Assembly (NCBI RefSeq): GCF_033097485.1
Contig: NZ_AP028634.1
Span: 62,001 to 126,000, forward strand
From: Pyrofollis japonicus
GTDB taxonomy: Archaea; Thermoproteota; Thermoprotei_A; Sulfolobales; Pyrodictiaceae
Direction of reading: 5' to 3'
DNA: 64,000 nucleotides
Positions 12,352 to 36,130 of this stretch are shown here, piece by piece (the first letter of the stretch is position 1; the number at the start of each line of letters is the position of its first letter). Below the pieces are notes generated by a model. It did not search any database. It was not told the origin of the DNA and saw only the letters and a list, made by a program, of their open reading frames with translations. The translations under genes were made by a program, and so were the position numbers.

Positions 12352-12467
<116 letters not shown>

Positions 12468-12632: not shown

Positions 12633-13022
12633 TTGGTTGAGCTTCCTCTTGAATGGGTTGAGAAGGCAGACGTGCTAATAGATGATGCAGAGAGACATCT
12701 TAGGGAAGGCCATTACTGGCTTACCTGTTTTGAGGCACAGCAGGCAGCAGAACTATATCTCGAAGCATTGATCGTTGCCCTTACGGGCACTCATCCATTT
12801 ACGCACGACTTGGCAGAGCTTCTTGAAGCGCTCCGAGAGCTAGATATCAGTGTCCCCGACGAGCTATTCGTCTACGCAGATGCACTTACACCTCACTACA
12901 CTATGGCCCGGTATCCTGGCCGGAAACCTCTGAGATATGACAGAGAGCTCGGTGAGAGGTGTCTCCGCTATGCCAGGAGAATCATCGACTGGGTTAAGGA
13001 GGCGGCTTCTAAGATCTCTTAG
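12633..13022 (+). CDS. HEPN-domain protein (partner of the adjacent MNT nucleotidyltransferase)
   Basis: 129 aa, TTG start. It shows the HEPN pattern: an N-terminal WVEKADVLIDDAERHL helix, CFEAQQAAELYLEALIV, then THDLAELLEALREL and a late HYTMARYPGRKP segment. HEPN proteins paired with minimal nucleotidyltransferases (MNT) form widespread prokaryotic toxin-antitoxin-like modules in which HEPN can be an RNase and MNT inactivates it by adding nucleotides. Here the RYP-type C-terminal motif replaces the canonical Arg-x4-6-His, as in the PF05168-like subgroup. The MNT gene follows eight bases downstream. Confidence 0.85.
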   Translation: MVELPLEWVEKADVLIDDAERHLREGHYWLTCFEAQQAAELYLEALIVALTGTHPFTHDLAELLEALRELDISVPDELFVYADALTPHYTMARYPGRKPLRYDRELGERCLRYARRIIDWVKEAASKIS

Positions 13023-13029
13023 AGAGAAA

Positions 13030-13356
13030 GTGGCGAAAAGCGACGAGCTACTGGAAGCCTTTTTGGCCAGGCTTCGTGAAAAATATCCTCGCTCAGCAAT
13101 AGTGCTTTTCGGCTCAAGGGCTCGCGGCGATCATCTTCCATACAGTGACTATGATGTAGCACTAGTGCTTCGCGACGAAGACTGTGCCGACAAAGTAGGG
13201 GTTGCTGAGGAGGCTCGTGCACTGAAGCCGCCAGGGCTCAGCCTCGACCTAATAGTGCTCTGCGTCAGCGAGCTGGACGACCCCCTGGTTAAGCAGATGC
13301 TTGGCGCCAAAAAAGTACTCTATGATGGCCTAGGCGTGTTCGAGGAGAAACACTGA
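13030..13356 (+). CDS. Minimal nucleotidyltransferase (MNT) of a HEPN/MNT pair
   Basis: GTG at 13030 preferred; an upstream ATG at 12937 would overlap the HEPN gene by 86 bases. About 108 aa. The pol-beta-type nucleotidyltransferase motif is intact: VLFGSRARGDHLPYSDYDVAL provides the GS...D-x-D metal site and LSLDLIVL the third Asp. MNT proteins of these pairs transfer nucleotides to the HEPN partner. Same strand and close spacing indicate one operon. Confidence 0.85.
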   Translation: MAKSDELLEAFLARLREKYPRSAIVLFGSRARGDHLPYSDYDVALVLRDEDCADKVGVAEEARALKPPGLSLDLIVLCVSELDDPLVKQMLGAKKVLYDGLGVFEEKH

Positions 13357-22498: not shown

Positions 22499-23452
22499 AT
22501 GCCAGTTATCAGCCTCGTTGGCGGTATAGGTATTGAGCTAAGAGTACGCAGCGCCGAGATAGCGGACAAAGTAGCTGATGCTTACCAGGGCCTCTTCGCC
22601 CGGCGCTATATCCCGGTAAAAGGCGTCGTGGAGACCGCTTCTATACCCGTCAAGGCTGTAGTGGAGTGGTGGAATGGGGACGGCTTCGAGGTAACGGGCT
22701 ACGAGTTCGGCGAGAAAGCTGATGCCTACTATGTTCGTAGCGGTGTACCCGAGCCCTATGTCAACGAGGCTCCTGTCTTCTTCATGCTGCAGGTCGCTGC
22801 CAGGACCTATGCTAGGAGCGGCTACATCTTGCTCACCGACAGCGTGGTCATACACGATCCGTCAAACGGCCACGGGGTGCTGCTCCTCGGCTACCCGCAC
22901 GGCGGCAAGAGCACTATCGCAGTGCTCTCCCTGGCCCGGGGACTCGGCGTCGCTTCGACCGAGAACACGGTTGCAAGGCTCCGAGAGGATGGGCGCCTAG
23001 AGGTCCTCGGCGGCACGACGGTGCTGCTCTACGATCCACGCGGCATAGAGCGCTACGGTGTCCGGCCACCCCTGGAGCCAGTGGGTGTGACTAAGCACGG
23101 CTACCATATTGTTGACCTTGAGGCAGCTGGGCGCAGTAATAGGGAGAAGCCAATACTAATTGACTCGATATATGTTCTCCACTGCTCATTCAGCGCCACT
23201 GGGTCGAGCTTCGAAAAAGTCTCGGGCAGGAAGAGGAGGAAAATACTCTGGCACTTCGCCTCCTCGCTGATAAGGGGAGACGACTACTATGACCCGTACC
23301 CCTTGAACCTCGCCACCAAGGACGTGGACGAGCAGGTTGCTCGCATCATTTACCGCATGGCGTCGGCCTACGTGGATAGCTTCTACGAGGCCTTCGGGGC
23401 CCACGACCAGGTCCTTGAAACGATTCTCCGGAACACCTCGTGGCTAGCATAG
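22499..23452 (+). CDS. HPr-kinase-like P-loop protein
   Basis: 317 aa, ATG start. The key motif is a Walker A loop GYPHGGKST at residues 131-139, preceded by DSVVIHDPSNGHGVLLL. The kinase loop placed directly after a short beta hairpin, followed by an ASTENTVARL segment, is the arrangement of HPr kinase/phosphorylase-like domains, which act on small proteins or free serine. The N-terminal about 100 residues are a separate unknown domain; no transmembrane segment is seen, so it is probably cytoplasmic. It lies between surface-protein genes and an exported MBL protein on the same strand. Substrate unknown; a general ATP-binding role is the safe call. Confidence 0.55.
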   Translation: MPVISLVGGIGIELRVRSAEIADKVADAYQGLFARRYIPVKGVVETASIPVKAVVEWWNGDGFEVTGYEFGEKADAYYVRSGVPEPYVNEAPVFFMLQVAARTYARSGYILLTDSVVIHDPSNGHGVLLLGYPHGGKSTIAVLSLARGLGVASTENTVARLREDGRLEVLGGTTVLLYDPRGIERYGVRPPLEPVGVTKHGYHIVDLEAAGRSNREKPILIDSIYVLHCSFSATGSSFEKVSGRKRRKILWHFASSLIRGDDYYDPYPLNLATKDVDEQVARIIYRMASAYVDSFYEAFGAHDQVLETILRNTSWLA

Positions 23453-24425: not shown

Positions 24426-26474
24426 TTACCTATTGACAATAGTCGTGTTTGTCGGGATGTAGGGGTCACCGCCTCCCGGCGAACCAGGCTCATAACCCAC
24501 AGTCATATAGTACTCTACAAAGAGTGGTTTGAACCCTGTTGCAACATTTGGCAATACATTGAGACTACGTTTATAAACCTCGACATAGGTGCTACTAAAC
24601 CCCATTTCCCATTGTGCTATTCCATGAATTTGTAGTACTAGATTCGAGCCGTGCGCTTGGAGAACTGTAATCTGTAAAGAGTTTTGAACAAGTTCAACAA
24701 CTGTTAGAGCAGCAGACGCATAGGGCGATAATTGTACCGCTCTGGTGAATTCTGAGAAGAGGTCGATTGCACCCTTTATGAATCCGAGGGCTTGTAGCAT
24801 CTTTCCGAGCGATGGGAAATAGTAGCTTATTGTGTCACCACAGAACCCGCTTAGACTTGTATCCCAAGCCCATGTCATATCATAGTAGAATCCGTTCTCG
24901 TACTTATCGTAGCTAACATAGTCGCTAAAGGTCTCGTATAAGGCCGCGTCTCCCCAAAGAACCTTATCATCGCCGGGTATTGTATCGGTTATGTCTTTCC
25001 TTTCTGGATTTAAGTAATCTATGTCCAGGTATATGCTTGGTACAAAGATTACTGCCGGCTTGACCACCCAGTAGTCGCCATAAGTGCTTATATCAACTAC
25101 GGTTATCGCTAAGTCGCCGAGCATACCCGGACCAATAGCAGAGTTAAGGACTATACATTTCCTAGGCTTTTGTATATTGATGTACGCAGGTGTACCGTTT
25201 TTGTTTCGTATTTGTGCCTTCTCTTGATGAGCTATAGTTATGAACCCGAATAGTGACAAGCCATTGACAGTCTTGTCGGCACTACTATATGCATATGATA
25301 TCGATGCTTCAATGTACTTTGAATAAGGGTTGTTTTTGTTGTAGTCTGCGGTTAGGCATATTGCGGGTATTGTTTCCTCGGTTACGGGTATGTCTGTGTC
25401 CTGCCACATGTAGTACTTGTATAGACCTGCTCGGTAATGGGCTAGGTCTGTTAGGAACTCACTCATAGGCCTTATGAGCCATGCTTTGCCTCCCTTTTCT
25501 TCCCCGTCTGCGGCGGTTATGTATGCGAAGCGGAGTGCTTGCTCAAGGCTATACATGTTCTTGTCTATGTAGTAGACTTTGCTGAAGTGCTGGGTATAGA
25601 TCTTCCACAGCCTGTCTATGTCGCTGCTTGGCGCTGGGCCTCCATTGTCGAGTCTTATCCTGCTATACCACTCGCTCGGAGCAGGCTTGCTGCTTAGGTC
25701 GTAGAGGTCTTTGTTGTAGACCTCGTAGTATATCCCTGGGTAGCCTGGCTCAGGGCTCCAATACTCTACACCGAGCCTCGGCCCCGGCAATGCTCTGCCG
25801 TGGAGTATCTCTTGCACAGACACCACTGCGTTGTCTATCGCCTTGCCGAAGTCTATGGGGTAGAGTCTCAGCTGCTTGACAACGATCACTCCGCCGCCAT
25901 AGACGCTCTCAAGCAGCTTGGAGGGGTTCTTGTCTGCGAGTTCGTACGCCTTATCACGGCTCATCCCGGGGTTCTTGGAGAGTAGGAGTCTTATAGGGCT
26001 AAGCGTCACGCCGCCAATATACTCCTTGCCGTCCGGGGTATAGAGGACGGCGACTAGGCTCATTACTGGCAGGGAGTGGCTCCACAGCTTCTCAGCCGGG
26101 GAAAGGCTAGCAGGGCTCCTCGACGCAGCGTTGTAGAGTTTGCTCCACGCTGAAAGCGCTTTCCCCCTGTCTATCTCCAAGCTTATAGTCTTCTTAGAGC
26201 CCCCGATCGTAGCTACTCTGAAAGCCTCCACGCCTCCATGGGGATAGGGGAGATGTGTTTCCAGAAGCAGCACCGAGCCATTCATGGATCCAAGGCTTTC
26301 CCAGCCCTCACCGGTATAGACAAGCGCCTTATCAAGGTCGACGACCAGGCTTACCACGTGGCCCCGCTGAAACCAAGGCAGAGAAACACTAAGGATGAAT
26401 ACACTGATGAAAACAATGATAACTATTGCTACGATTACTGCAAGCTTGAAGGCCCTAAAACGTTGACTCAGCAT
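24426..26474 (-). CDS. Very large secreted protein of unknown function
   Basis: 682 aa, ATG start. An N-terminal hydrophobic helix (LAVIVAIVIIVFISVFILSV) serves as signal or anchor. The rest is aromatic-rich, beta-type extracellular sequence with no recognised domain (for example VEYWSPEPGYPGIYYEVYNK, and a late GFYYDMTWAWDTSLSGFC). Only a few cysteines occur. The N-terminal half has the GC-rich codon use of the genome, whereas the C-terminal half (about 24426-25370) is noticeably AT-richer, as if the gene were assembled from two sources. Convergent with the MBL gene, 22 bases between them. Confidence 0.6.
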   Translation of the reverse strand: MLSQRFRAFKLAVIVAIVIIVFISVFILSVSLPWFQRGHVVSLVVDLDKALVYTGEGWESLGSMNGSVLLLETHLPYPHGGVEAFRVATIGGSKKTISLEIDRGKALSAWSKLYNAASRSPASLSPAEKLWSHSLPVMSLVAVLYTPDGKEYIGGVTLSPIRLLLSKNPGMSRDKAYELADKNPSKLLESVYGGGVIVVKQLRLYPIDFGKAIDNAVVSVQEILHGRALPGPRLGVEYWSPEPGYPGIYYEVYNKDLYDLSSKPAPSEWYSRIRLDNGGPAPSSDIDRLWKIYTQHFSKVYYIDKNMYSLEQALRFAYITAADGEEKGGKAWLIRPMSEFLTDLAHYRAGLYKYYMWQDTDIPVTEETIPAICLTADYNKNNPYSKYIEASISYAYSSADKTVNGLSLFGFITIAHQEKAQIRNKNGTPAYINIQKPRKCIVLNSAIGPGMLGDLAITVVDISTYGDYWVVKPAVIFVPSIYLDIDYLNPERKDITDTIPGDDKVLWGDAALYETFSDYVSYDKYENGFYYDMTWAWDTSLSGFCGDTISYYFPSLGKMLQALGFIKGAIDLFSEFTRAVQLSPYASAALTVVELVQNSLQITVLQAHGSNLVLQIHGIAQWEMGFSSTYVEVYKRSLNVLPNVATGFKPLFVEYYMTVGYEPGSPGGGDPYIPTNTTIVNR

Positions 26475-26709
26475 TTAAGAGCCTAACCCCATGTAGCCAA
26501 GACAGTAATGTATATGAGGATAATAAATAAGCATTTATTTTCAGCTACGCTATTTAAATCCATTATATAAGTACAGAGCACTAATACGGCAGACTAATGG
26601 AACACTCACTAACTCATTCAAAAAGTTTTTGTCTAGTTAGTATATAGTGATATATATATCTGAGTATATAATAAAATGTATTATCGTGGATAGAAAAGGG
26701 TGTTCACTA

Positions 26710-28059
26710 GTGGAGAATAAGGTAAAGAATATCCTTGTTTTATCAATAGTAGTTGTTGCGGCCTTTGCCATAATGCATTCCGTCCTTGCCAGCGACGAAG
26801 CACAAGTTATCATAAATAACTGGTTAAAAGGAAAGCCAAAGATGCTGGTAAAGCTTGAGATAGATCTTCCAAGTATAAATGCAGATAAATGCATAGTGCA
26901 TGTGAGAAGATTTCCATCTATTTATAATCCTACAAAAGACGGTTATACAGAGCCGATATACACGGGTACTCATAAACCCGGGAGCAGGGTCATAGTTAGT
27001 AAGATCCTCAACGCGTATGTGACAAAATACACTCTTGATAAGAAGACTAATGAGCTTCGTGTAGGCTACTATGAGCCCCAAGAATTCCTTGTCCTTGTAA
27101 ATTGCCTAAAGAATGGGAAGCAAGTATATAAGTGGGGTAAAATAGTAGAAGTCTACCCCAAGAGTATAATCTATACAAAGAAAATAGCTGTTCAAGCTAA
27201 CCAGTTATTAATGAACCAACGTCAATCACACAAGTTCAATAAAACAACCCATATCCGGGCCATAAGTAGAGGAGGATTAAACCCTAGTATAACGGATTCT
27301 GCTTCTACAGATCCCTTTAAATGCAGCATAGTCATCCAAGAAGAAGGAACAGACTACAAGAAGGGATATTGTCTTACGTGGGTAAAGGGGCCTTATTTAT
27401 ATTCTATTGAAGGACTAACTACAAAGTTTTGCTTAGATAGTAGACCACCAAAATCAGCTGTCTATCTTGAAGCTTTCGAGGATCTTGATGCAGGAATATT
27501 TTTAAGGCCAGAAAGCGATGTTGAATGGAGCTCTGCTGGGAAGAAATTAGTGCCTTCGCAGATTGAGATTAGCCAGCACTGTCCTTCGCTGACTGGTAAC
27601 CACAAGGAAGAGATATACTTCTGGACAGAATACATATATGAATGGAGTGTATACTATTGTGATAGCTTTAGCGGTATATGTTACGAATACTGGCTTTTAT
27701 ACCCCTACATGATAAGAGGAATTGCAAAAGCCTCAGACTTAGGCATTACTCCATATCCTGAAGACTATGTACCTCCAAGCAATTTACCACCATATGCTAA
27801 TCCAGGCTATTATGTTGATAAGATCTATTTTGGCCAGTATGGAGCCTACCAAAGCGACGTAAGCCTATCCGGTATTACTGTGACTGTTACCTATTCTAAT
27901 GTATGGTCTGCATCACTTACGATACACTTTTATAAGGCTGGTAGAGACGATAACCAGTATACAACGCCATACGTCTATGTAGAGTATACAAGGTTCTTCT
28001 ATTGGTGGTTTAAAGACAATGATCCAATGACTTATGAAGTACTGTTTTCGCCAGGATAG
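26710..28059 (+). CDS. AT-rich secreted protein, paralogue A
   Basis: 449 aa from the GTG at 26710, which puts a clean signal peptide (NILVLSIVVVAAFAIMHSVL) at the N-terminus; the frame itself is open from 26647. The C-terminal 250 residues are clearly related to the protein at 29485-30495: both have GPYLYSxEG, LTGNHK, CDSFSGICYxYW, HFYKA and a final FYWWFKD...LSPG/FSPG ending. Paired cysteines suggest disulfides in an extracellular protein. The gene is far more AT-rich than average and is followed by an oligo-T terminator. No known family recognised. Confidence 0.6.
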   Translation: MENKVKNILVLSIVVVAAFAIMHSVLASDEAQVIINNWLKGKPKMLVKLEIDLPSINADKCIVHVRRFPSIYNPTKDGYTEPIYTGTHKPGSRVIVSKILNAYVTKYTLDKKTNELRVGYYEPQEFLVLVNCLKNGKQVYKWGKIVEVYPKSIIYTKKIAVQANQLLMNQRQSHKFNKTTHIRAISRGGLNPSITDSASTDPFKCSIVIQEEGTDYKKGYCLTWVKGPYLYSIEGLTTKFCLDSRPPKSAVYLEAFEDLDAGIFLRPESDVEWSSAGKKLVPSQIEISQHCPSLTGNHKEEIYFWTEYIYEWSVYYCDSFSGICYEYWLLYPYMIRGIAKASDLGITPYPEDYVPPSNLPPYANPGYYVDKIYFGQYGAYQSDVSLSGITVTVTYSNVWSASLTIHFYKAGRDDNQYTTPYVYVEYTRFFYWWFKDNDPMTYEVLFSPG

Positions 28060-28068
28060 TAAGAAACA

Positions 28069-28101
28069 TTTTGTATTATTTTTAATTATTTTTTTTAATT
28101 T
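28069..28101 (+). terminator. Oligo-T terminator after paralogue A
   Basis: Repeated T runs (ATTTTTAATTATTTTTTTTAA) begin 10 bases after the stop codon at 28059, the form of an archaeal intrinsic terminator. Confidence 0.6.
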
Positions 28102-28153
28102 AAATAATGAGATTATATCAATTATTGTTTGCTATTCCTTTGCTGAGTAGGAG

Positions 28154-28354
28154 TCAAATGGCCTCACGGGGCGACGTGGGTGTGTATCCTAGTTGAGAGG
28201 CGAGCCTCATAGCCATGTCTAGTATTGCTTGTACTTGTAGCATGTGGATCACTGCTAGCTCTTCGACCCAGCTCTGTAGCCCCTTCTCTGCGAGCTCGTC
28301 TAGCTTAGCAGTCATCTCGGCTACTGTCGTAGCCAGCCTGGCCAGTACACCCAT
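28154..28354 (-). pseudogene. Truncated HEPN (DUF86-like) gene
   Basis: 66 aa. The sequence matches the first half of DUF86-type HEPN proteins (helix TTVAEMTAKLDELAEKGL, then HMLQVQAILDMAMRLASQLG and TSPREAI) and then stops. Full family members are about 110-140 aa and carry the Arg-x4-6-His motif in the missing half. Directly after the stop the DNA becomes the AT-rich tract next to paralogue A, so the gene was probably cut by an insertion or rearrangement. It starts six bases after the end of its MNT partner, the usual operon order for this subgroup. Confidence 0.6.
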
Positions 28355-28360
28355 ATCGCT

Positions 28361-28807
28361 CTAGCCCCGCCACCTCCGCCTAGCCGCCTCAACGGCGGTC
28401 TCAACTAGTCTTAGCTTCTTGGCTGCGATCTCGTAGTCCCAGCAAATCATTACACGTCTGAGTAACCACTCCTTGGCGGCCCCTTTCTCTTCTTCGTAGA
28501 CTATTACGCCGCGTCTCCAAGCGCTACGAATAATAGGGCAAGGCGTATCTGGTTCTGCTTCAACAACGTCTACGAGGGAATAATCAATGCCTAGTGCATC
28601 GGCTACGGCTGTCACGACTCTTATCCTCCACTCGCTGCCTCCCTTCCCGCCCCTGTGCTTTACAAGGAGGTCTACATCCCTGCCCTCTCCGCGCTCAGCT
28701 AGACTACCGAAAACAACAACCCATTCAGCCTCTAAGCTTCTCCAATCAAGCCTCCGAAGACTCTCCGCAACTTCTCGGAGCCTTAGCATCGCGTCCCCTG
28801 CTCCCAC
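28361..28807 (-). CDS. Minimal nucleotidyltransferase, partner of a truncated HEPN
   Basis: 148 aa. N-terminal helix, then WVVVFGSLAERGEGRDVDLLV (GS motif and D-x-D metal site, near residues 31-48) and IDYSLVDVVEAE with the third acidic residue. The C-terminal part EWLLRRVMICWDYEIAAKKL resembles the extension seen in MNT proteins paired with DUF86. The active-site residues are intact although the HEPN partner is shortened. In complete systems MNT neutralises HEPN. Confidence 0.75.
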   Translation of the reverse strand: MGAGDAMLRLREVAESLRRLDWRSLEAEWVVVFGSLAERGEGRDVDLLVKHRGGKGGSEWRIRVVTAVADALGIDYSLVDVVEAEPDTPCPIIRSAWRRGVIVYEEEKGAAKEWLLRRVMICWDYEIAAKKLRLVETAVEAARRRWRG

Positions 28808-28898
28808 GATTGCTTGTGAGGGGGTCTGGGAATCAAAATATGCCTCCCGAGCCGCTAAGGAGGCAAGCCTAACCTGGTTTAGGCATGCCAGGCTAGCG

Positions 28899-29375
28899 TT
28901 AGCATGTTTCGTTTTTCGTAGTCAGCTGGGGGGCCCCGGGGACGGACGAGGCTATTCCGATTAAGGCGTGGACGCAGCGCTCTATAGATCCTGGTTTGCA
29001 GAGGAAGAGGTGCGTAGGAGCAATCTTGTCGTCGGTGGAGCCGGCGCCTCTTCCAACGGGCTCTAGTAGCCTAGAGGAGGCAGCGGCGAGTGCTAGCCAC
29101 GGCTCTGCTCTGGGGGAGCAAAGCTGCTCCCCTGGGACATGGACTGCGAGGAGGGGCTCCGCGCCGGGCAGGGATAGGAGGCGGTCAATGTGCCAGTGCA
29201 TTTTCTTGCGCTTGCCGCAGAGATGGCGGCGCAGCCTAGCCCCTAGCCCACCGGGGCCACAGGCGCTCCCGATGTAGACGTAGAGCCCGGGTCCTAAGCA
29301 AAGACTCTCCTTGCCAAGCCTCGTGCAAGCCTCGTCGCGGAGGCTGAAGAGGAGCAGGTAGACGCCAACGCTCAC
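28899..29375 (-). CDS. DUF123 (GIY-YIG-like) domain protein
   Basis: About 158 aa from the GTG at 29375; the frame is open to 29483 but the first 36 residues there look non-coding (Cys/Arg-rich). The DUF123 pattern is clear: GVYLLLFSL, GPGLYVYIGSACGPGGLGAR, LRRHLCGKRKKMHWHIDRLL. This small archaeal domain is also found fused to endonuclease III in some species and resembles GIY-YIG nucleases (the YVYIGSA segment). A nucleic-acid role is inferred from that. The end contains a Cys residue (NETC). Confidence 0.8.
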   Translation of the reverse strand: MSVGVYLLLFSLRDEACTRLGKESLCLGPGLYVYIGSACGPGGLGARLRRHLCGKRKKMHWHIDRLLSLPGAEPLLAVHVPGEQLCSPRAEPWLALAAASSRLLEPVGRGAGSTDDKIAPTHLFLCKPGSIERCVHALIGIASSVPGAPQLTTKNETC

Positions 29376-29484
29376 GCCAAGGTCATCTCCGCGAGCCGCT
29401 ATTCTCGGAGATGGAATATGCCGGGGACAAGCCCTTCTTTTACACCTTCTTTTACAGTTACTTGAATCGAGAAAAGGATGCAAC

Positions 29485-30495
29485 TTATCCCGGCGAGAGT
29501 ATCATCTCATAATTCGTCATGTCCCCGTCTTTGAACCACCAGTAAAAACTCCTGGTGCTAATCCTTCTCACGCGTGGCGATGTATGTATTATGTCGCAGA
29601 TAACCGCCTTGTAGAAGTGCACTGCTAGCCCTATGGACCATTTGTCGGGGTACGTGACTATGATCGGAGTAATTGCCAGGGGGATATCGCTTTCAAAATG
29701 TTGTCCAGGTATGCAGAAGGAGTACTCGCCTGAGCCACCACTATACATGGCGTATGGTGGTAGCTTGCCCAACGCTGTACTACTTGGGGGAGTATAGTTC
29801 TCTGGGTGCTGCCTAGCGCCTAGCTGGGTGGCAGTCGCTACGCCTGCTATCTCGACGGGGTATAGTCTCCAGTACTGGTAGCAGATTCCCGAGAAGCTGT
29901 CGCACCACGCGGTGCCCTCCTCGTAGGCGAATCTTACGTGGAAGTAGACTCTGTCCTTGTGATTACCGGTCAAAGGGAGTGTGCAGCCGGACTCGCTTGC
30001 GGTCACCGGTCTCTTTCCTGCATGGCTTAGCACAGCGGAACCGTTCTCCGGGAGCAGTAGTACCGGCGCTAGGCCGGCGAACTCCTCGAAGTAGAGGGTC
30101 GTGTAAAAGCTCTGACCATATATGCAGAACTGTATGCTCACCCCCTCAAGGGAGTAGAGGTAGGGGCCGCCAATCCATGCATCACAATATCCTCTTTCAT
30201 GGTCATACTCCTTCTCGGTGATAACGATGCGGCACTCGAATATCTTGCCAGAATAGTTCTGGCTATCGCCGACTCCTTGAGCAAGCCTAGTGGTAATAGT
30301 GTTGAGAGATGTCCCTGGCTCCCCGTTTAGAGACGAATTTAGAGACGAATATAGGTCTCTGTGCCATTCTGTGGCTCCTTTCCCGGCTAAGCTATTTGCC
30401 CACAGTGATGCATTGCTTGCGGCGATTAGGGCGTAGACAGAGGCGAAGACTGCGAGAACGATGAATAATGCTCTGATGGCTTTGGGAACGCTCAT
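29485..30495 (-). CDS. Secreted protein, paralogue B
   Basis: 336 aa. Signal peptide ALFIVLAVFASVYALIAASN at the N-terminus, then an extracellular domain that aligns end to end with the C-terminal part of the 26710-28059 protein: GPYLYSLEG, LTGNHKDRVYF, CDSFSGICYQYW, VHFYKA, and a final SFYWWFKDGD...LSPG. It lacks paralogue A's N-terminal 170-residue domain. Unlike paralogue A its codon use is GC-rich, like the host genome. The function is unknown; conserved cysteines and aromatic residues suggest a stable extracellular fold. Confidence 0.65.
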   Translation of the reverse strand: MSVPKAIRALFIVLAVFASVYALIAASNASLWANSLAGKGATEWHRDLYSSLNSSLNGEPGTSLNTITTRLAQGVGDSQNYSGKIFECRIVITEKEYDHERGYCDAWIGGPYLYSLEGVSIQFCIYGQSFYTTLYFEEFAGLAPVLLLPENGSAVLSHAGKRPVTASESGCTLPLTGNHKDRVYFHVRFAYEEGTAWCDSFSGICYQYWRLYPVEIAGVATATQLGARQHPENYTPPSSTALGKLPPYAMYSGGSGEYSFCIPGQHFESDIPLAITPIIVTYPDKWSIGLAVHFYKAVICDIIHTSPRVRRISTRSFYWWFKDGDMTNYEMILSPG

Positions 30496-30647: not shown

Positions 30648-31229
30648 TTATGGTTGTCTCGCTAGCCTCTCCTCCAGCTTCTTGAGGATCTCTTCATGCG
30701 TGTCGGTCCAAGCGTCTTTTCCTCTAAGTGCTGGCCTAAGCTTTTCTCGAACGATCTTCGCTAGGCGGTTGAGGAGGTAAATGATATCGTATACTGCTTC
30801 TTCGCGCCTAGTGTACTTGCTTAGCTCGGCTTCGGGATCCGGGCCGTGGTATTGATAGTCGTGCAGGTCTAGGGCTGTATTAGTATAGGGCGCGTAGTTC
30901 TCGTAACCAATCCCTTCTATGAGCTGGCCTAGATACTTCAGCCGAGTACTCGGTATTCTAGTCAGACCTTTCTCTGCGAGCCAAGAGCGCTCCTCCGCCC
31001 TCTTCAGCATGTCTAGTATCTTGTTTTTCTCCAGTGCCAGTATTGATGCTGTTAGAGCCCTCCATGCCTGGAATGCTTTGCCTGCAGCGTTCCGCGTATA
31101 GCCTTTTTCAAGAAACTCTACGGCTAGTAATGCCTCAGCAAGCGCTTCCAGTACGCGGGCAGAGGCATAGCCTACAAGGTCCTTCTTAGGCTTAGGCAGC
31201 GGCTTCTCCAATACCTCTGCGGTGACCAT
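30648..31229 (-). CDS. PaREP1-family protein
   Basis: 193 aa, all helical. It carries the PaREP1 pattern: ARVLEALAEALLAVEFLEKG, AAGKAFQAWRALTASILA, then a central Tyr-rich segment (YAPYTNTALDLHDYQYHG) and a C-terminal basic helix. PaREP1 proteins are abundant in Thermoproteota genomes, often in many copies, and are thought to belong to the HEPN fold group. No nucleotidyltransferase lies next to it. This is the second PaREP1 gene in the window and, unlike 3307-3789, has no DNA-binding domain. Confidence 0.7.
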   Translation of the reverse strand: MVTAEVLEKPLPKPKKDLVGYASARVLEALAEALLAVEFLEKGYTRNAAGKAFQAWRALTASILALEKNKILDMLKRAEERSWLAEKGLTRIPSTRLKYLGQLIEGIGYENYAPYTNTALDLHDYQYHGPDPEAELSKYTRREEAVYDIIYLLNRLAKIVREKLRPALRGKDAWTDTHEEILKKLEERLARQP

Positions 31230-34114: not shown

Positions 34115-35107
34115 CTAGGCTATTGTGTCCTCCTCTACCTGTGGCTTCTCCTTGTCGACGGGGTGGCGGCGGAACATGCCCCATAGTAGTAGGGCGGCTG
34201 ACTTCGGCGGTATTATGCCGCGCTCAGTCACTATCATGTCTATGTACTCTGGCGGTGTCGCGTCAAAGGCGGGGTTCCTTATCGCTAGCCCTGGGATAGG
34301 CTTCTCGAGTACCTCTGTCGGGCTTCTCTCCTCGATCTCGACGAGCTGTCCTACCACGGTGTATGGGCTGAACTTGTAGGTCTCTGTCGCGACTATGAAG
34401 GTTACGCCGTGGAGCTTCGCGGCCAGCGCTATCTGGCTAGTCCCTATCTTGTTTATTACCGCGCCGTTCGCCGTAACGGTGTCAGCGCCTACAATGACCT
34501 TTGTGACGCGATACTTCTCTATAACGGTGAGGACTGCTGAGTCGGGTATGAGGGTGACAGGTATACCCTCTGCTGCGAGATCCCTAGCAGTTATGTAGCC
34601 TTGGAACCTGGGCCGTGTCTCAGTAGCGAATACCTTGAATCTCTTCCCCTGCCTCCAGGCGGTCCTCAGCACTGATTCGACGGCGCTACTATTGCAGTGC
34701 GTCAGTATGACGTCACCTGTCTTGATTAGCCTAGCCCCTATCTCGCCTAGTCGCTGGAGGGCACTCCTAGAGTACTCTATGAACTCTCTCGCCTTCTCTA
34801 TGACCGCCTTCCTCGCTTCCTCCAGGCTCCCGTACTCCTTCTCCCTTAGAACCGACATGACGTAGTTGACGGCGTTGGGGAGGCTCACGGCAGTAGGCCT
34901 CGTCGATACCAGGAGCCTTGCAACACCCTCCATATAGTTGAGGAAGTCTCCTAGGCTCTCGCCGCTATACTTCTCGGCAGCAATCATTAGCGCCTCGGCA
35001 GCTGCCCTGGCTATGCGCCCAGCCCCCCTTATTCTCATAGTCTTAATGTCCTCGGCTATGCGTAGAACCTCGTCCGGTACCCTCTCAGCTATCCGGGCCT
35101 CGCTCAT
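34115..35107 (-). CDS. e2b2: Ribose-1,5-bisphosphate isomerase (eIF2B fold)
   Basis: 330 aa. The eIF2B-like fold is evident (RIRGAGRIARAAAEALMIAA; NYVMSVLREKEYGSLEEARK). The residues proven important in the Thermococcus enzyme are present: Cys138 in THCNSSAVESVL and Asp209 in VIVGADTVTANGAVINKIGT. The enzyme converts ribose-1,5-bisphosphate to ribulose-1,5-bisphosphate in the archaeal AMP/nucleoside degradation route before type III RuBisCO. It lies between a paralogue and nth on one operon. RuBisCO and AMP phosphorylase are outside the window. Confidence 0.9.
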   Translation of the reverse strand: MSEARIAERVPDEVLRIAEDIKTMRIRGAGRIARAAAEALMIAAEKYSGESLGDFLNYMEGVARLLVSTRPTAVSLPNAVNYVMSVLREKEYGSLEEARKAVIEKAREFIEYSRSALQRLGEIGARLIKTGDVILTHCNSSAVESVLRTAWRQGKRFKVFATETRPRFQGYITARDLAAEGIPVTLIPDSAVLTVIEKYRVTKVIVGADTVTANGAVINKIGTSQIALAAKLHGVTFIVATETYKFSPYTVVGQLVEIEERSPTEVLEKPIPGLAIRNPAFDATPPEYIDMIVTERGIIPPKSAALLLWGMFRRHPVDKEKPQVEEDTIA

Positions 35108-35128
35108 AGATACCAGCCCCTCTACTGG

Positions 35129-36130
35129 CTACACCTCGCCTAGATCCATGACTCTCTTCGAAGCCCTGGCGACTAGGTTGTCAAGGGGCTCTAGCTCAGG
35201 CGGCCACTCACCATAAATCTCCTTAATTATTAGCGGCACAGCCTCCGGCGCCACCAGGCCTCTCTCAGTGGCAAGAGCGTCTATCAAGTGGCTCGGGATT
35301 ATCTCGAAGAGAGGCGCATATCCCTGGACACCAAGGCTCCTCAGATCCTCTGGTACTATCTCGTCGCCTAGCGCAGGGGTCTCGACTGTGAGCCCGTACA
35401 CCGTCTCCGGGTAGAGCTTGTAGCTACCAGCAACAACTATGAGCCGTACCCTCGCCTCGTTAGCTACGAGCGCTAACAACCCGCTACCCGTCCTCGAAAC
35501 AACAGAGCCATCAGCCATCACGGCGTCTGCGCCTATCAATGCCTTCGTGGCCTCCCGGGCAAAGAACCTCATAGCGGAGTCGACGATGAGAGTCGTGTCA
35601 AACCCCTTCTCGACAAGAACTTTAGCAGCTTCAAGGCCGTCGAGAAGGGGCCTCGACTCGGCAACTATGACCCTTATCTTCTTCCCCATGGCGGCGGCCT
35701 TCTCAAGCGCCCTTATAACGCTGCGACTATACCCATAGGTCAGCACAATGTCTCCGTCGCTAAGCCTCCTAGCAGCTATCTCAGCGGCCCCCTCGGTCTC
35801 CTCTAGCACTGCGCGCATAGTGTCATCAAGCTCGTGGATAATGATATTCTTAGCCTCCTCTAGGCTCTTGTACTTCCTTTCAGCGAGCGCGCCAAAGACC
35901 TCACGTGCAACGTTGACAAGGAGAGCGGAGAACGGGTACTCCTCAATCCTCGCCTTCAGATAGTCAAGTGCCTCCAACACATCGCTAACAGAAGCAGCGT
36001 TCTCAATCATCCTCCTAAACTCCTTTATAACGAGCTCCGAGGCCTCCGTAGCCCCTAGGCCTCGGACCCTACCAATGAAGCCGGACACGGCTTGCGACAC
36101 CAAGGCAGATACACGCACCACTCTCGTCAC
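35129..36130 (-). CDS. eIF2B-fold paralogue lacking the isomerase cysteine
   Basis: 333 aa. Same fold as the next gene (YKSLEEAKNIIIHELDD, SDGDIVLTYGYSRSVIRALE, ALIGADAVMADGSVVSRTGS), but the catalytic Cys is replaced by Gly (Gly133 in TYGYSRS) while the Asp of the GAD motif is kept. It is therefore probably not a ribose-1,5-bisphosphate isomerase. Archaeal aIF2B-like proteins of this kind have been linked to translation initiation and to sugar-phosphate binding. First gene of the operon 36130-33344; the 20-base spacer to the isomerase gene supports a functional pair or an old duplication. Confidence 0.8.
   Translation of the reverse strand: MTRVVRVSALVSQAVSGFIGRVRGLGATEASELVIKEFRRMIENAASVSDVLEALDYLKARIEEYPFSALLVNVAREVFGALAERKYKSLEEAKNIIIHELDDTMRAVLEETEGAAEIAARRLSDGDIVLTYGYSRSVIRALEKAAAMGKKIRVIVAESRPLLDGLEAAKVLVEKGFDTTLIVDSAMRFFAREATKALIGADAVMADGSVVSRTGSGLLALVANEARVRLIVVAGSYKLYPETVYGLTVETPALGDEIVPEDLRSLGVQGYAPLFEIIPSHLIDALATERGLVAPEAVPLIIKEIYGEWPPELEPLDNLVARASKRVMDLGEV

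What the first reader, a model, noticed from the sequence alone, without database searches (positions are those of the whole stretch)
26710..30495. Two paralogous secreted proteins on either side of an MNT/HEPN module
Paralogues A (26710-28059) and B (29485-30495) share Cys- and aromatic-rich motifs (GPYLYSxEG, LTGNHK, CDSFSGICYxYW, FYWWFKD) but differ sharply in base composition. They flank a nucleotidyltransferase, a broken HEPN gene and a DUF123 protein. They resemble no family I know. A duplicated extracellular family next to a nucleic-acid-targeting module could be a conflict or cell-surface interaction system.
Basis: partly seen in the sequence, partly recalled or inferred. Interest (0 to 1): 0.58.

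Follow-up and report, generated by a model that had tools for sequence, protein, structure and literature searches.

The report
Secreted archaeal beta-proteins, possibly pore-formers
Two related secreted proteins in a heat-loving archaeon belong to an undescribed, patchily spread archaeal family whose main domain is predicted to resemble pore-forming (aerolysin-like) proteins; the toxin-antitoxin-like genes between them look like a chance neighbour, not a partner.

Summary
A (26710-28056 +) and B (29488-30495 -) are 42% identical over 261 columns (E 2e-65); GC is 39% and 53%. They flank an MNT, a truncated HEPN and a DUF123 gene. The proposed module does not hold. In a same-genus genome HPrK-like, DUF123 and PaREP1 genes lie side by side without A or B, and the MNT/HEPN pair is intact on another contig. 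Of 39 family loci, two (the window; L042, with a different pair 3.4 kb away) have an MNT/HEPN pair within 4 kb, about the chance rate. The family is a solitary, accessory, secreted one: 23 of 214 genomes of the order, 6 of 59 Archaeoglobi, with no convincing database match. A is a signal peptide, an Ig-like domain and a beta domain (pLDDT 93.9). The beta domain's PDB fold matches are mostly aerolysin-like pore-formers: 32 of 50 Foldseek rows, 38 of 43 VIA rows; but they are weak (best Z 4.3) and lack sequence support. Best reading: a new archaeal secreted family that may work like aerolysin-type pore-formers; a structural surface protein is about as likely.

The parts
26710..28056 (+). Paralogue A, 449 aa: N-terminal hydrophobic helix (signal/anchor, residues 2-25), Ig-like domain (about 43-160), disordered linker (165-199), C-terminal beta domain (203-449)
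   Evidence: AlphaFold2 model pLDDT 84.4, pTM 0.82
26836..27210 (+). A, N-terminal Ig-like beta-sandwich (residues 43-167)
   Evidence: VIA-align matches mostly to generic Ig-like/transthyretin-like sandwiches; best row Z 8.8 over 102 residues at 4.0 A is a secretin pilot protein
27316..28056 (+). A, C-terminal beta domain (residues 203-449) with long strands
   Evidence: AlphaFold2 model of the domain alone pLDDT 93.9, pTM 0.89; fold matches mostly aerolysin-like
27847..27942 (+). A, residues 380-411: Ser/Thr-rich, charge-poor strand pair with alternating pattern; candidate membrane hairpin (inferred)
29488..30495 (-). Paralogue B, 336 aa: hydrophobic N-terminus followed by the C-terminal beta domain (Ig-like domain absent)
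29488..30240 (-). B, C-terminal beta domain homologous to A 203-449
26501..28155 (.). AT-rich block (25-48% GC per 100 bases) holding A and ending inside the HEPN gene; reads as a recent insertion or recombination (inferred)
28154..28354 (-). HEPN (HepT-like) remnant, 66 aa; catalytic half lost. Not part of the A/B family
28361..28807 (-). MNT-type nucleotidyltransferase. Not part of the A/B family
28899..29483 (-). DUF123 protein; conserved in related genomes at this place without A/B
30648..31229 (-). PaREP1 family protein (a HEPN-T family according to PMC3710099); neighbour of DUF123 in a same-genus genome too

Best explanation
A and B belong to an undescribed family of secreted archaeal proteins that spreads as single accessory genes. 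The full-length form is signal peptide + Ig-like domain + C-terminal beta domain. The C-terminal domain most likely has an aerolysin-like architecture. Proposed mechanism: the protein is exported by Sec, the Ig-like domain (or, in short forms, the C-domain itself) binds a target surface, the C-domain oligomerises, and a Ser/Thr-rich amphipathic beta hairpin inserts in a membrane, so the protein punches holes in competing cells. Shown: family, domain limits, predicted fold, N-terminal hydrophobic segment, patchy multi-copy distribution, independence from MNT/HEPN. Inferred: aerolysin-type fold kinship, oligomerisation, membrane insertion, antagonism.
For: C-domain model pLDDT 93.9, pTM 0.89. 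By row titles plus recalled classification, 32 of the 50 Foldseek PDB rows shown are aerolysin-like proteins of several subfamilies; the best is C. perfringens epsilon toxin, E 6.6e-4, prob 0.84. In the VIA re-alignment 38 of 43 rows, ranks 1-26 without exception, are aerolysin-like. Strand order (long, long, Ser/Thr-rich insert, long, long, Pro-rich loop, long) fits the five-strand core described in PMC3110756 (passages). The hairpin at A 380-411 has alternation up to 0.63 and, around residues 390-403, under 10% charged residues. 32 of 34 members have a strongly hydrophobic N-terminal segment; 19 of 25 have an even number of cysteines, as disulphide-bonded exported proteins often do. The N-domain is missing in B and two other copies, as expected of a dispensable or exchangeable binding module. 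Patchy multi-copy presence with broken copies and a clade joining Archaeoglobi to a copy of another phylum (99/95) fit a gene under antagonistic selection and transfer.
Against: Fold similarity is weak: TM-scores 0.03-0.24, best VIA Z 4.3 at 5.0 A over 112 residues, below the tool's own caution level. Only one C-domain model was made. No sequence-level link: none of 17 C-domains hits Pfam ETX_MTX2 or Aerolysin at E up to 10, no PDB sequence at E up to 10. At the place where the aerolysin fold has its amphipathic insertion hairpin (C-domain 61-95 by strand order) our family is Ser/Thr-rich but does not alternate (0.19-0.36 around A 277-296); the alternating hairpin lies at a different place. 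The short copy G129c lacks that hairpin. No immunity, activating protease or receptor gene was seen to travel with it.
Confidence: 0.33

Rival explanations
1. A and B are structural or adhesive surface proteins (pseudo-periplasmic, S-layer-associated, pilus- or tube-like) with two beta domains; the Tyr/Trp-rich long strands and amphipathic hairpin make subunit contacts, not pores.
For: All-beta two-domain exported protein with mostly even cysteine counts and Tyr-rich composition; Ig-like N-domain resembles generic adhesion and assembly modules; copies in an A. fulgidus-size genome and in Archaeoglobus UBA230 sit among other exported or membrane proteins of unknown role.
Against: Patchy, 23 of 214 genomes of the order, and often decayed: odd for a structural element. 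Listed fold matches of the C-domain are mostly not fibre or lattice proteins, though a missing match excludes nothing.
Confidence: 0.35
2. One reading: A/B and the MNT/HEPN/DUF123 genes between them form one conflict or defence locus.
For: Physical adjacency in the window; one other family locus, L042, has an MNT with a short HEPN ORF 3.4-3.6 kb away inside a run of PIN-type genes (PIN by reading), and two more have such pairs at 6.4-6.9 kb (L139, L142).
Against: In the same-genus genome G004 HPrK, DUF123 and PaREP1 are contiguous without A, B, MNT or HEPN, and the MNT/HEPN pair lies intact on another contig. 37 of 39 family loci have no MNT/HEPN pair within 4 kb; the locus orthologous to L042 in G086 (L045) has none. 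The window genome has 11 PF01909 and 9 PF18765 places, so one lies within 4 kb of any gene about 4-8% of the time (my estimate), that is 2-3 expected among 39 against 2 seen. The window HEPN is truncated.
Confidence: 0.03
3. A/B are carbohydrate- or protein-binding secreted proteins used in feeding (for example capturing polymers), with no membrane activity.
For: Carbohydrate-binding-module rows among generic matches of the full model; aromatic-rich conserved motifs.
Against: No neighbouring hydrolase or transporter recurs across lineages apart from common ABC-type ATPases; the two such rows have TM-scores 0.08-0.14.
Confidence: 0.15
4. B and the other short copies are decaying duplicates rather than functional short forms (a question about B, not exclusive of the explanations above).
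For: Each short copy has the longer branch of its pair: B 1.14 against A 0.46, G129c 1.43 against 0.69, G169c 0.53 against 0.22; many broken copies exist; G129c lacks the hairpin.
Against: B keeps an intact frame, hydrophobic start, the invariant cysteines and the C-terminal WW motif.
Confidence: 0.4

Closest known systems
Aerolysin-like beta-pore-forming proteins (aerolysin, epsilon toxin/MTX2, parasporin-2, Bombina aerolysin-like protein, SaroL-1)
   Same: Best PDB fold matches of the C-domain; order of long strands with a Ser/Thr-rich insert; exported; modular N-terminal domain plus C-terminal module, sometimes the module alone.
   Different: Weak scores, no sequence match, no alternating hairpin at the canonical place, Tyr/Trp-rich long strands, hyperthermophilic archaeal hosts. 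PMC3110756 counts only 3 archaeal members, all Euryarchaeota, none with an assigned function (section 6 read).
MNT/HEPN (MntA/HepT) toxin-antitoxin modules
   Same: An MNT and a HEPN remnant lie between A and B.
   Different: No conserved linkage to the family elsewhere; HEPN truncated; different cell compartment (inferred).
VARTIG modules of Thermococcales (PMC8416519, abstract and outline seen)
   Same: Archaeal Ig-domain proteins proposed for conflicts.
   Different: VARTIG is a multi-gene hypervariable module with several Ig domains; here a solitary gene with one Ig-like domain and another C-domain. No sequence test was made.
Pyrodictium cannula proteins (CanA; PMC12326000, search listing and start of abstract only)
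   Same: Extracellular proteins of a hyperthermophilic archaeon (that they are beta-rich is recalled).
   Different: CanA is shorter (recalled, about 180 aa); it is not among the rows listed, which excludes nothing.

Membership tests
Aerolysin-like beta-PFT superfamily | Core of five long strands b1,b2,(insertion),b3,b4,(variable loop),b5 (PMC3110756) | tested here: inconclusive
   Strand order from DSSP fits and most listed fold matches are of this family, but Z is at most 4.3 and no coordinates could be inspected.
Aerolysin-like beta-PFT superfamily | Insertion loop between b2 and b3 with alternating polar/non-polar residues | tested here: not met
   By strand order this is C-domain 61-95; Ser/Thr-rich but no clear alternation. 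An alternating, charge-poor hairpin exists later, at A 380-411. The strand mapping is itself uncertain.
Aerolysin-like beta-PFT superfamily | Sequence match to Pfam ETX_MTX2 or Aerolysin, or to PDB members | tested here: not met
   17 C-domains against Pfam at E up to 10: none; profile against PDB sequences at E up to 10: none.
Aerolysin-like beta-PFT superfamily | Oligomeric pore in a membrane | not testable with these tools
   Needs purified protein.
MNT/HEPN toxin-antitoxin system with A/B as partners | Conserved linkage of the genes | tested here: not met
   2 of 39 loci with a pair within 4 kb, of different subtypes.
MNT/HEPN toxin-antitoxin system (the pair alone) | Intact HEPN with R-x4-6-H | tested here: not met
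   Window copy ends before the motif; intact in G004. Motif as in PMC3710099 (passages), which also says that some HEPN toxins lack it.
Ig-like fold (N-domain of A) | Ig-like/transthyretin-like beta sandwich | tested here: inconclusive
   VIA Z 6.5-8.8 to many such domains, spanning model 43-167.

The most novel reading that the evidence does not exclude
A first family of aerolysin-like pore-forming proteins in Thermoproteota and Archaeoglobi: secreted, thermostable membrane-perforating weapons of hyperthermophilic archaea that act on tetraether-lipid or bacterial membranes, with a separable Ig-like targeting domain that has been lost at least twice, perhaps three times.
Probability: 0.25. Interest if true: 0.78.

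Novelty: new variant of a known kind. Interest (0 to 1): 0.47.

Why it matters
Weapons and secreted effectors of hyperthermophilic archaea are poorly known. If the C-domain is a pore-forming module, these genes would give a directly testable archaeal antagonism system and heat-stable nanopores.

Tried and rejected
MNT/HEPN/DUF123 partnership: rejected. My first neighbour scan used only the window's own proteins and a narrow motif and found no other pair; a wider scan found one at L042 within 4 kb and two at 6.4-6.9 kb (L139, L142), and replaces it. Both scans are less sensitive than Pfam profiles; the Pfam whole-genome lists were truncated by the tool, and the distance check used rows that I picked by eye from them (it showed a PF01909 place 3.7 kb from a G024 member, the L042 pair, and one 2.2 kb from a G129 member in a 472-aa frame, the size of a CCA-adding enzyme by recall).

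Link with the HPrK-like kinase (22499-23452), adjacent to a family member in G040: the kinase is in 43 of 214 genomes, the family in 23 of 214, both in 4 by my reading of the two lists (G000, G040, G129, G164), adjacent only in G040. Rejected.

Relation of the 682-aa secreted protein (24426-26474) to A: no meaningful BLASTP similarity.

Viral origin: no relative in viral contigs, no PHROG match for 17 members, only generic hits among viral fold models.

Remnant of an N-domain upstream of B: none by tblastn; other hits of A's N-domain were short, best E 0.025. Mobile-element repeats flanking A/B: only short imperfect repeats.

Archaeal ETX_MTX2 proteins as a harmless bridge to aerolysin-like families: 0 of 392 genomes over the cut-off; C-domain profile in the 392 genomes of the same kind of draw: 6 strong and 2 weak, E 0.05-0.08.

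Not among listed fold matches (tells nothing): cannula, TasA-like or S-layer structures.

Caveat: counts of aerolysin-like rows use row titles and recalled family knowledge (for example that Sip, Mpp75Aa, Cry51Aa, Cry23Aa and SaroL-1 belong); the BoNT HA70 row was not counted. The alternation score is my own measure (mean Wimley-White-type difference between odd and even positions in 12-residue windows; scale values typed from recall).
Full report
What is in the window. The window is bases 62001-126000 of a single-contig 2,005,174-base archaeal genome. A (26710-28056, 449 aa) and B (29488-30495, 336 aa) are real paralogues: 42% identity over 261 columns, E 2e-65. A third, full-length paralogue of 465 aa lies at C1:748493-749845. 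None of the three has a Pfam match; A and B have none in NCBIfam either. The family has no PHROG match (17 members), no PDB sequence match (best E 0.099 to a designed protein, none) and no recurring Pfam match beyond a weak, probably spurious ribosomal L18A hit in 2 of 25 members and single weak hits to two other families.

The genes between A and B. The nucleotidyltransferase is MNT-like and the 66-aa ORF is the first half of a HepT-like HEPN (both below curated cut-offs). In the same-genus genome G004 the intact pair (148 and 130 aa, 61% and 64% identical to the window copies) sits on another contig, and its HEPN has an R-x4-H motif that the window copy lacks. Homology of the window HEPN ends where an AT-rich block begins (28001-28100 is 25% GC) that contains A. 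The simplest reading, an inference, is that the block carrying A arrived by recombination inside the HEPN gene.

Synteny. In G004 the order is HPrK-like, DUF123, PaREP1, then (after a 63-aa ORF) an oxidoreductase (SQR-like by recall), with the first three directly adjacent; the window has an MBL-fold gene, a 682-aa secreted protein, A, the HEPN remnant and the MNT between the first two, and B between DUF123 and PaREP1. G004 is 99% complete and holds no family member. PaREP1 is itself placed in the HEPN superfamily (PMC3710099, passages read), but it is multi-copy in these genomes and no homologue of the window PaREP1 was found in the other family loci.

Family and distribution. A profile found matches in 23 of 214 genomes of the order and 9 of 398 sampled in the phylum. 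A pattern scan of named genomes gave 17 loci: Desulfurococcales, Desulfurococcaceae, Sulfolobales, Acidilobaceae and Aeropyrum MAGs, and five from Archaeoglobi. Archaeoglobi: 6 of 59 genomes. Two single-contig genomes with members have the exact sizes that I recall for Archaeoglobus fulgidus DSM 4304 (2,178,400) and Pyrobaculum aerophilum IM2 (2,222,430); the names are recalled, not from a call. Archaeoglobus UBA230 has three copies in tandem. Viral contigs: none. By my own count there are about 39 places in the 23 genomes, of which roughly nine look like relics (fragments or in-frame stops away from contig ends).

Neighbourhoods. Clustering of ORFs in 33 fetched loci and the window found no gene that accompanies the family across lineages; the largest shared cluster besides the family itself (13 loci) looks like ABC ATPases (by reading, no profile run), and the other shared neighbours are in at most 3 loci, the longest shared runs between close relatives. 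For MNT/HEPN I scanned 39 family loci (38 plus the window; 13 have less than 4 kb of flank on one side) with ten seed proteins and a motif: a pair lies within 4 kb in the window and in L042, where a different MNT and a short HEPN ORF sit 3.4-3.6 kb away in a run of PIN-type genes (PIN by reading); L043 has a nucleotidyltransferase-like ORF 2.7 kb away without HEPN; L139 and L142 have pairs at 6.4-6.9 kb. The orthologous locus of L042 in G086 (L045) shows none. The window genome has 11 PF01909 and 9 PF18765 places, so two coincidences among 39 loci are about what chance gives (my estimate, 4-8% per locus).

Tree. On the C-domain (34 members, 256 columns, IQ-TREE) A and B are sisters (99/97), and their nearest group is the pair G129a/G129c (91/78); the Archaeoglobi clade joins the Pyrobaculum-size-genome copy (99/95), which suggests transfer between phyla, though the root is not known. 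Three short members lack the Ig-like domain: B, G129c and G169c. B and G129c are each sister to a full-length copy of the same genome; G169c is sister to G170b, a copy from a related genome whose annotated start is itself late. In each pair the short copy has the longer branch. The three sit in different parts of the tree, so at least two and probably three losses are independent.

Structure. A is predicted as a hydrophobic N-terminal helix, an Ig-like sandwich, a disordered linker and a large beta domain (pLDDT 84.4, pTM 0.82). The N-domain matches generic Ig-like and transthyretin-like domains (Z mostly 6.5-7.1, top row 8.8 to a secretin pilot protein). The C-domain alone gives pLDDT 93.9 and pTM 0.89. 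Its Foldseek PDB matches begin with epsilon toxin (E 6.6e-4, prob 0.84), and 32 of the 50 rows shown are aerolysin-like; the others include arrestins, cupins and dioxygenases. Of the 1000 chains re-aligned by VIA, 56 reach Z 2; 43 rows were listed, and 38 are aerolysin-like, including ranks 1 to 26. The absolute scores are poor: Z at most 4.3 (parasporin-2, 112 residues, 5.0 A), TM-scores 0.03-0.24. The tool states that Z under 8 may mean only a common arrangement. I take this as a specific but weak signal.

Does it behave like an aerolysin-type module? PMC3110756 (passages; section 6) defines the core as b1, b2, an amphipathic insertion hairpin, b3, b4, a variable loop and b5. Our strand order fits if strand 14-30 is b1, 34-60 b2, 61-95 the insert, 96-115 b3, 122-138 b4, 139-177 the variable loop and 178-193 b5 (C-domain numbering). 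The insert is Ser/Thr-rich but does not alternate clearly; the clear alternating, charge-poor, Ser/Thr-rich hairpin is 178-209 (A 380-411). So one defining feature fails at the expected place, and membership is not claimed. Among hyperthermophile strands, whose polar face is usually charged (recalled), this hairpin is unusual and could line a pore or form a subunit interface.

Secretion. 32 of 34 members have a 15-residue segment with mean Kyte-Doolittle above 1.8 near the N-terminus; the other two have late annotated starts. Several Archaeoglobi copies show A-x-A-like sites after it (seen in sequence). 19 of 25 members have an even cysteine count, and C205 and C221 of A are in the nearly invariant set.

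Literature. Searches combining aerolysin with archaea and pore-forming, with Methanosarcina and with Archaeoglobus fulgidus, and archaeal pore-forming toxins with hyperthermophilic, listed no paper that by title describes such a family in Thermoproteota or Archaeoglobi. PMC3110756 lists 3 archaeal members, all Euryarchaeota. A review says in passing that archaea also make pore-forming toxins (PMC9558359, passages). PMC9468336 (SaroL-1) was seen in passages. Papers that I saw only as listings are not evidence either way.

Verdict. The sequence observation is right; the MNT/HEPN partnership is not supported. What remains is a genuine, undescribed, exported archaeal family with a well-predicted two-domain structure whose larger domain looks most, though weakly, like aerolysin-type pore-formers. 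A pore-forming antagonist and a structural surface protein are about equally likely on present evidence.

Noticed in passing
12359-12467 (-): tRNA found by Rfam (60.5 bits) but not by ARAGORN; 109 bases, so probably intron-bearing.
   Followed up: no
12633-13356: A second HEPN/MNT-type pair in the window: HEPN-like ORF 12633-13022 overlapping an MNT-like ORF 12937-13356.
   Followed up: partly
22499-23452 (+): 317-aa P-loop protein (HPr-kinase-like by recall), no Pfam or NCBIfam match, present in 43 of 214 genomes of the order: an unannotated conserved archaeal family.
   Followed up: partly
24426-26474 (-): 682-aa secreted Tyr-rich protein without family matches; 58% identical homologue in G004 about 7.5 kb from its DUF123 gene, near the initiation-factor-like pair.
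   Followed up: partly
30648-31229 (-): PaREP1 copies are numerous in related genomes (many hits of this stretch), consistent with a dispersed HEPN-type repeat family.
   Followed up: partly
L083:8727-12483: Three tandem family members in Archaeoglobus UBA230 with exported or membrane proteins upstream; the A. fulgidus-size genome copy (L139) has a similar exported neighbourhood including a zinc-dependent phospholipase C-like protein.
   Followed up: partly
L042:12271-14920: Run of PIN-type toxin-antitoxin-like ORFs with an MNT and a short HEPN ORF near a family member in G024 (by reading).
   Followed up: partly
34115-36130 (-): Two adjacent paralogous ORFs that look like translation-initiation-factor-2B-type or ribose-1,5-bisphosphate isomerase-like proteins (recalled; not searched), conserved in order in relatives.
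   Followed up: no
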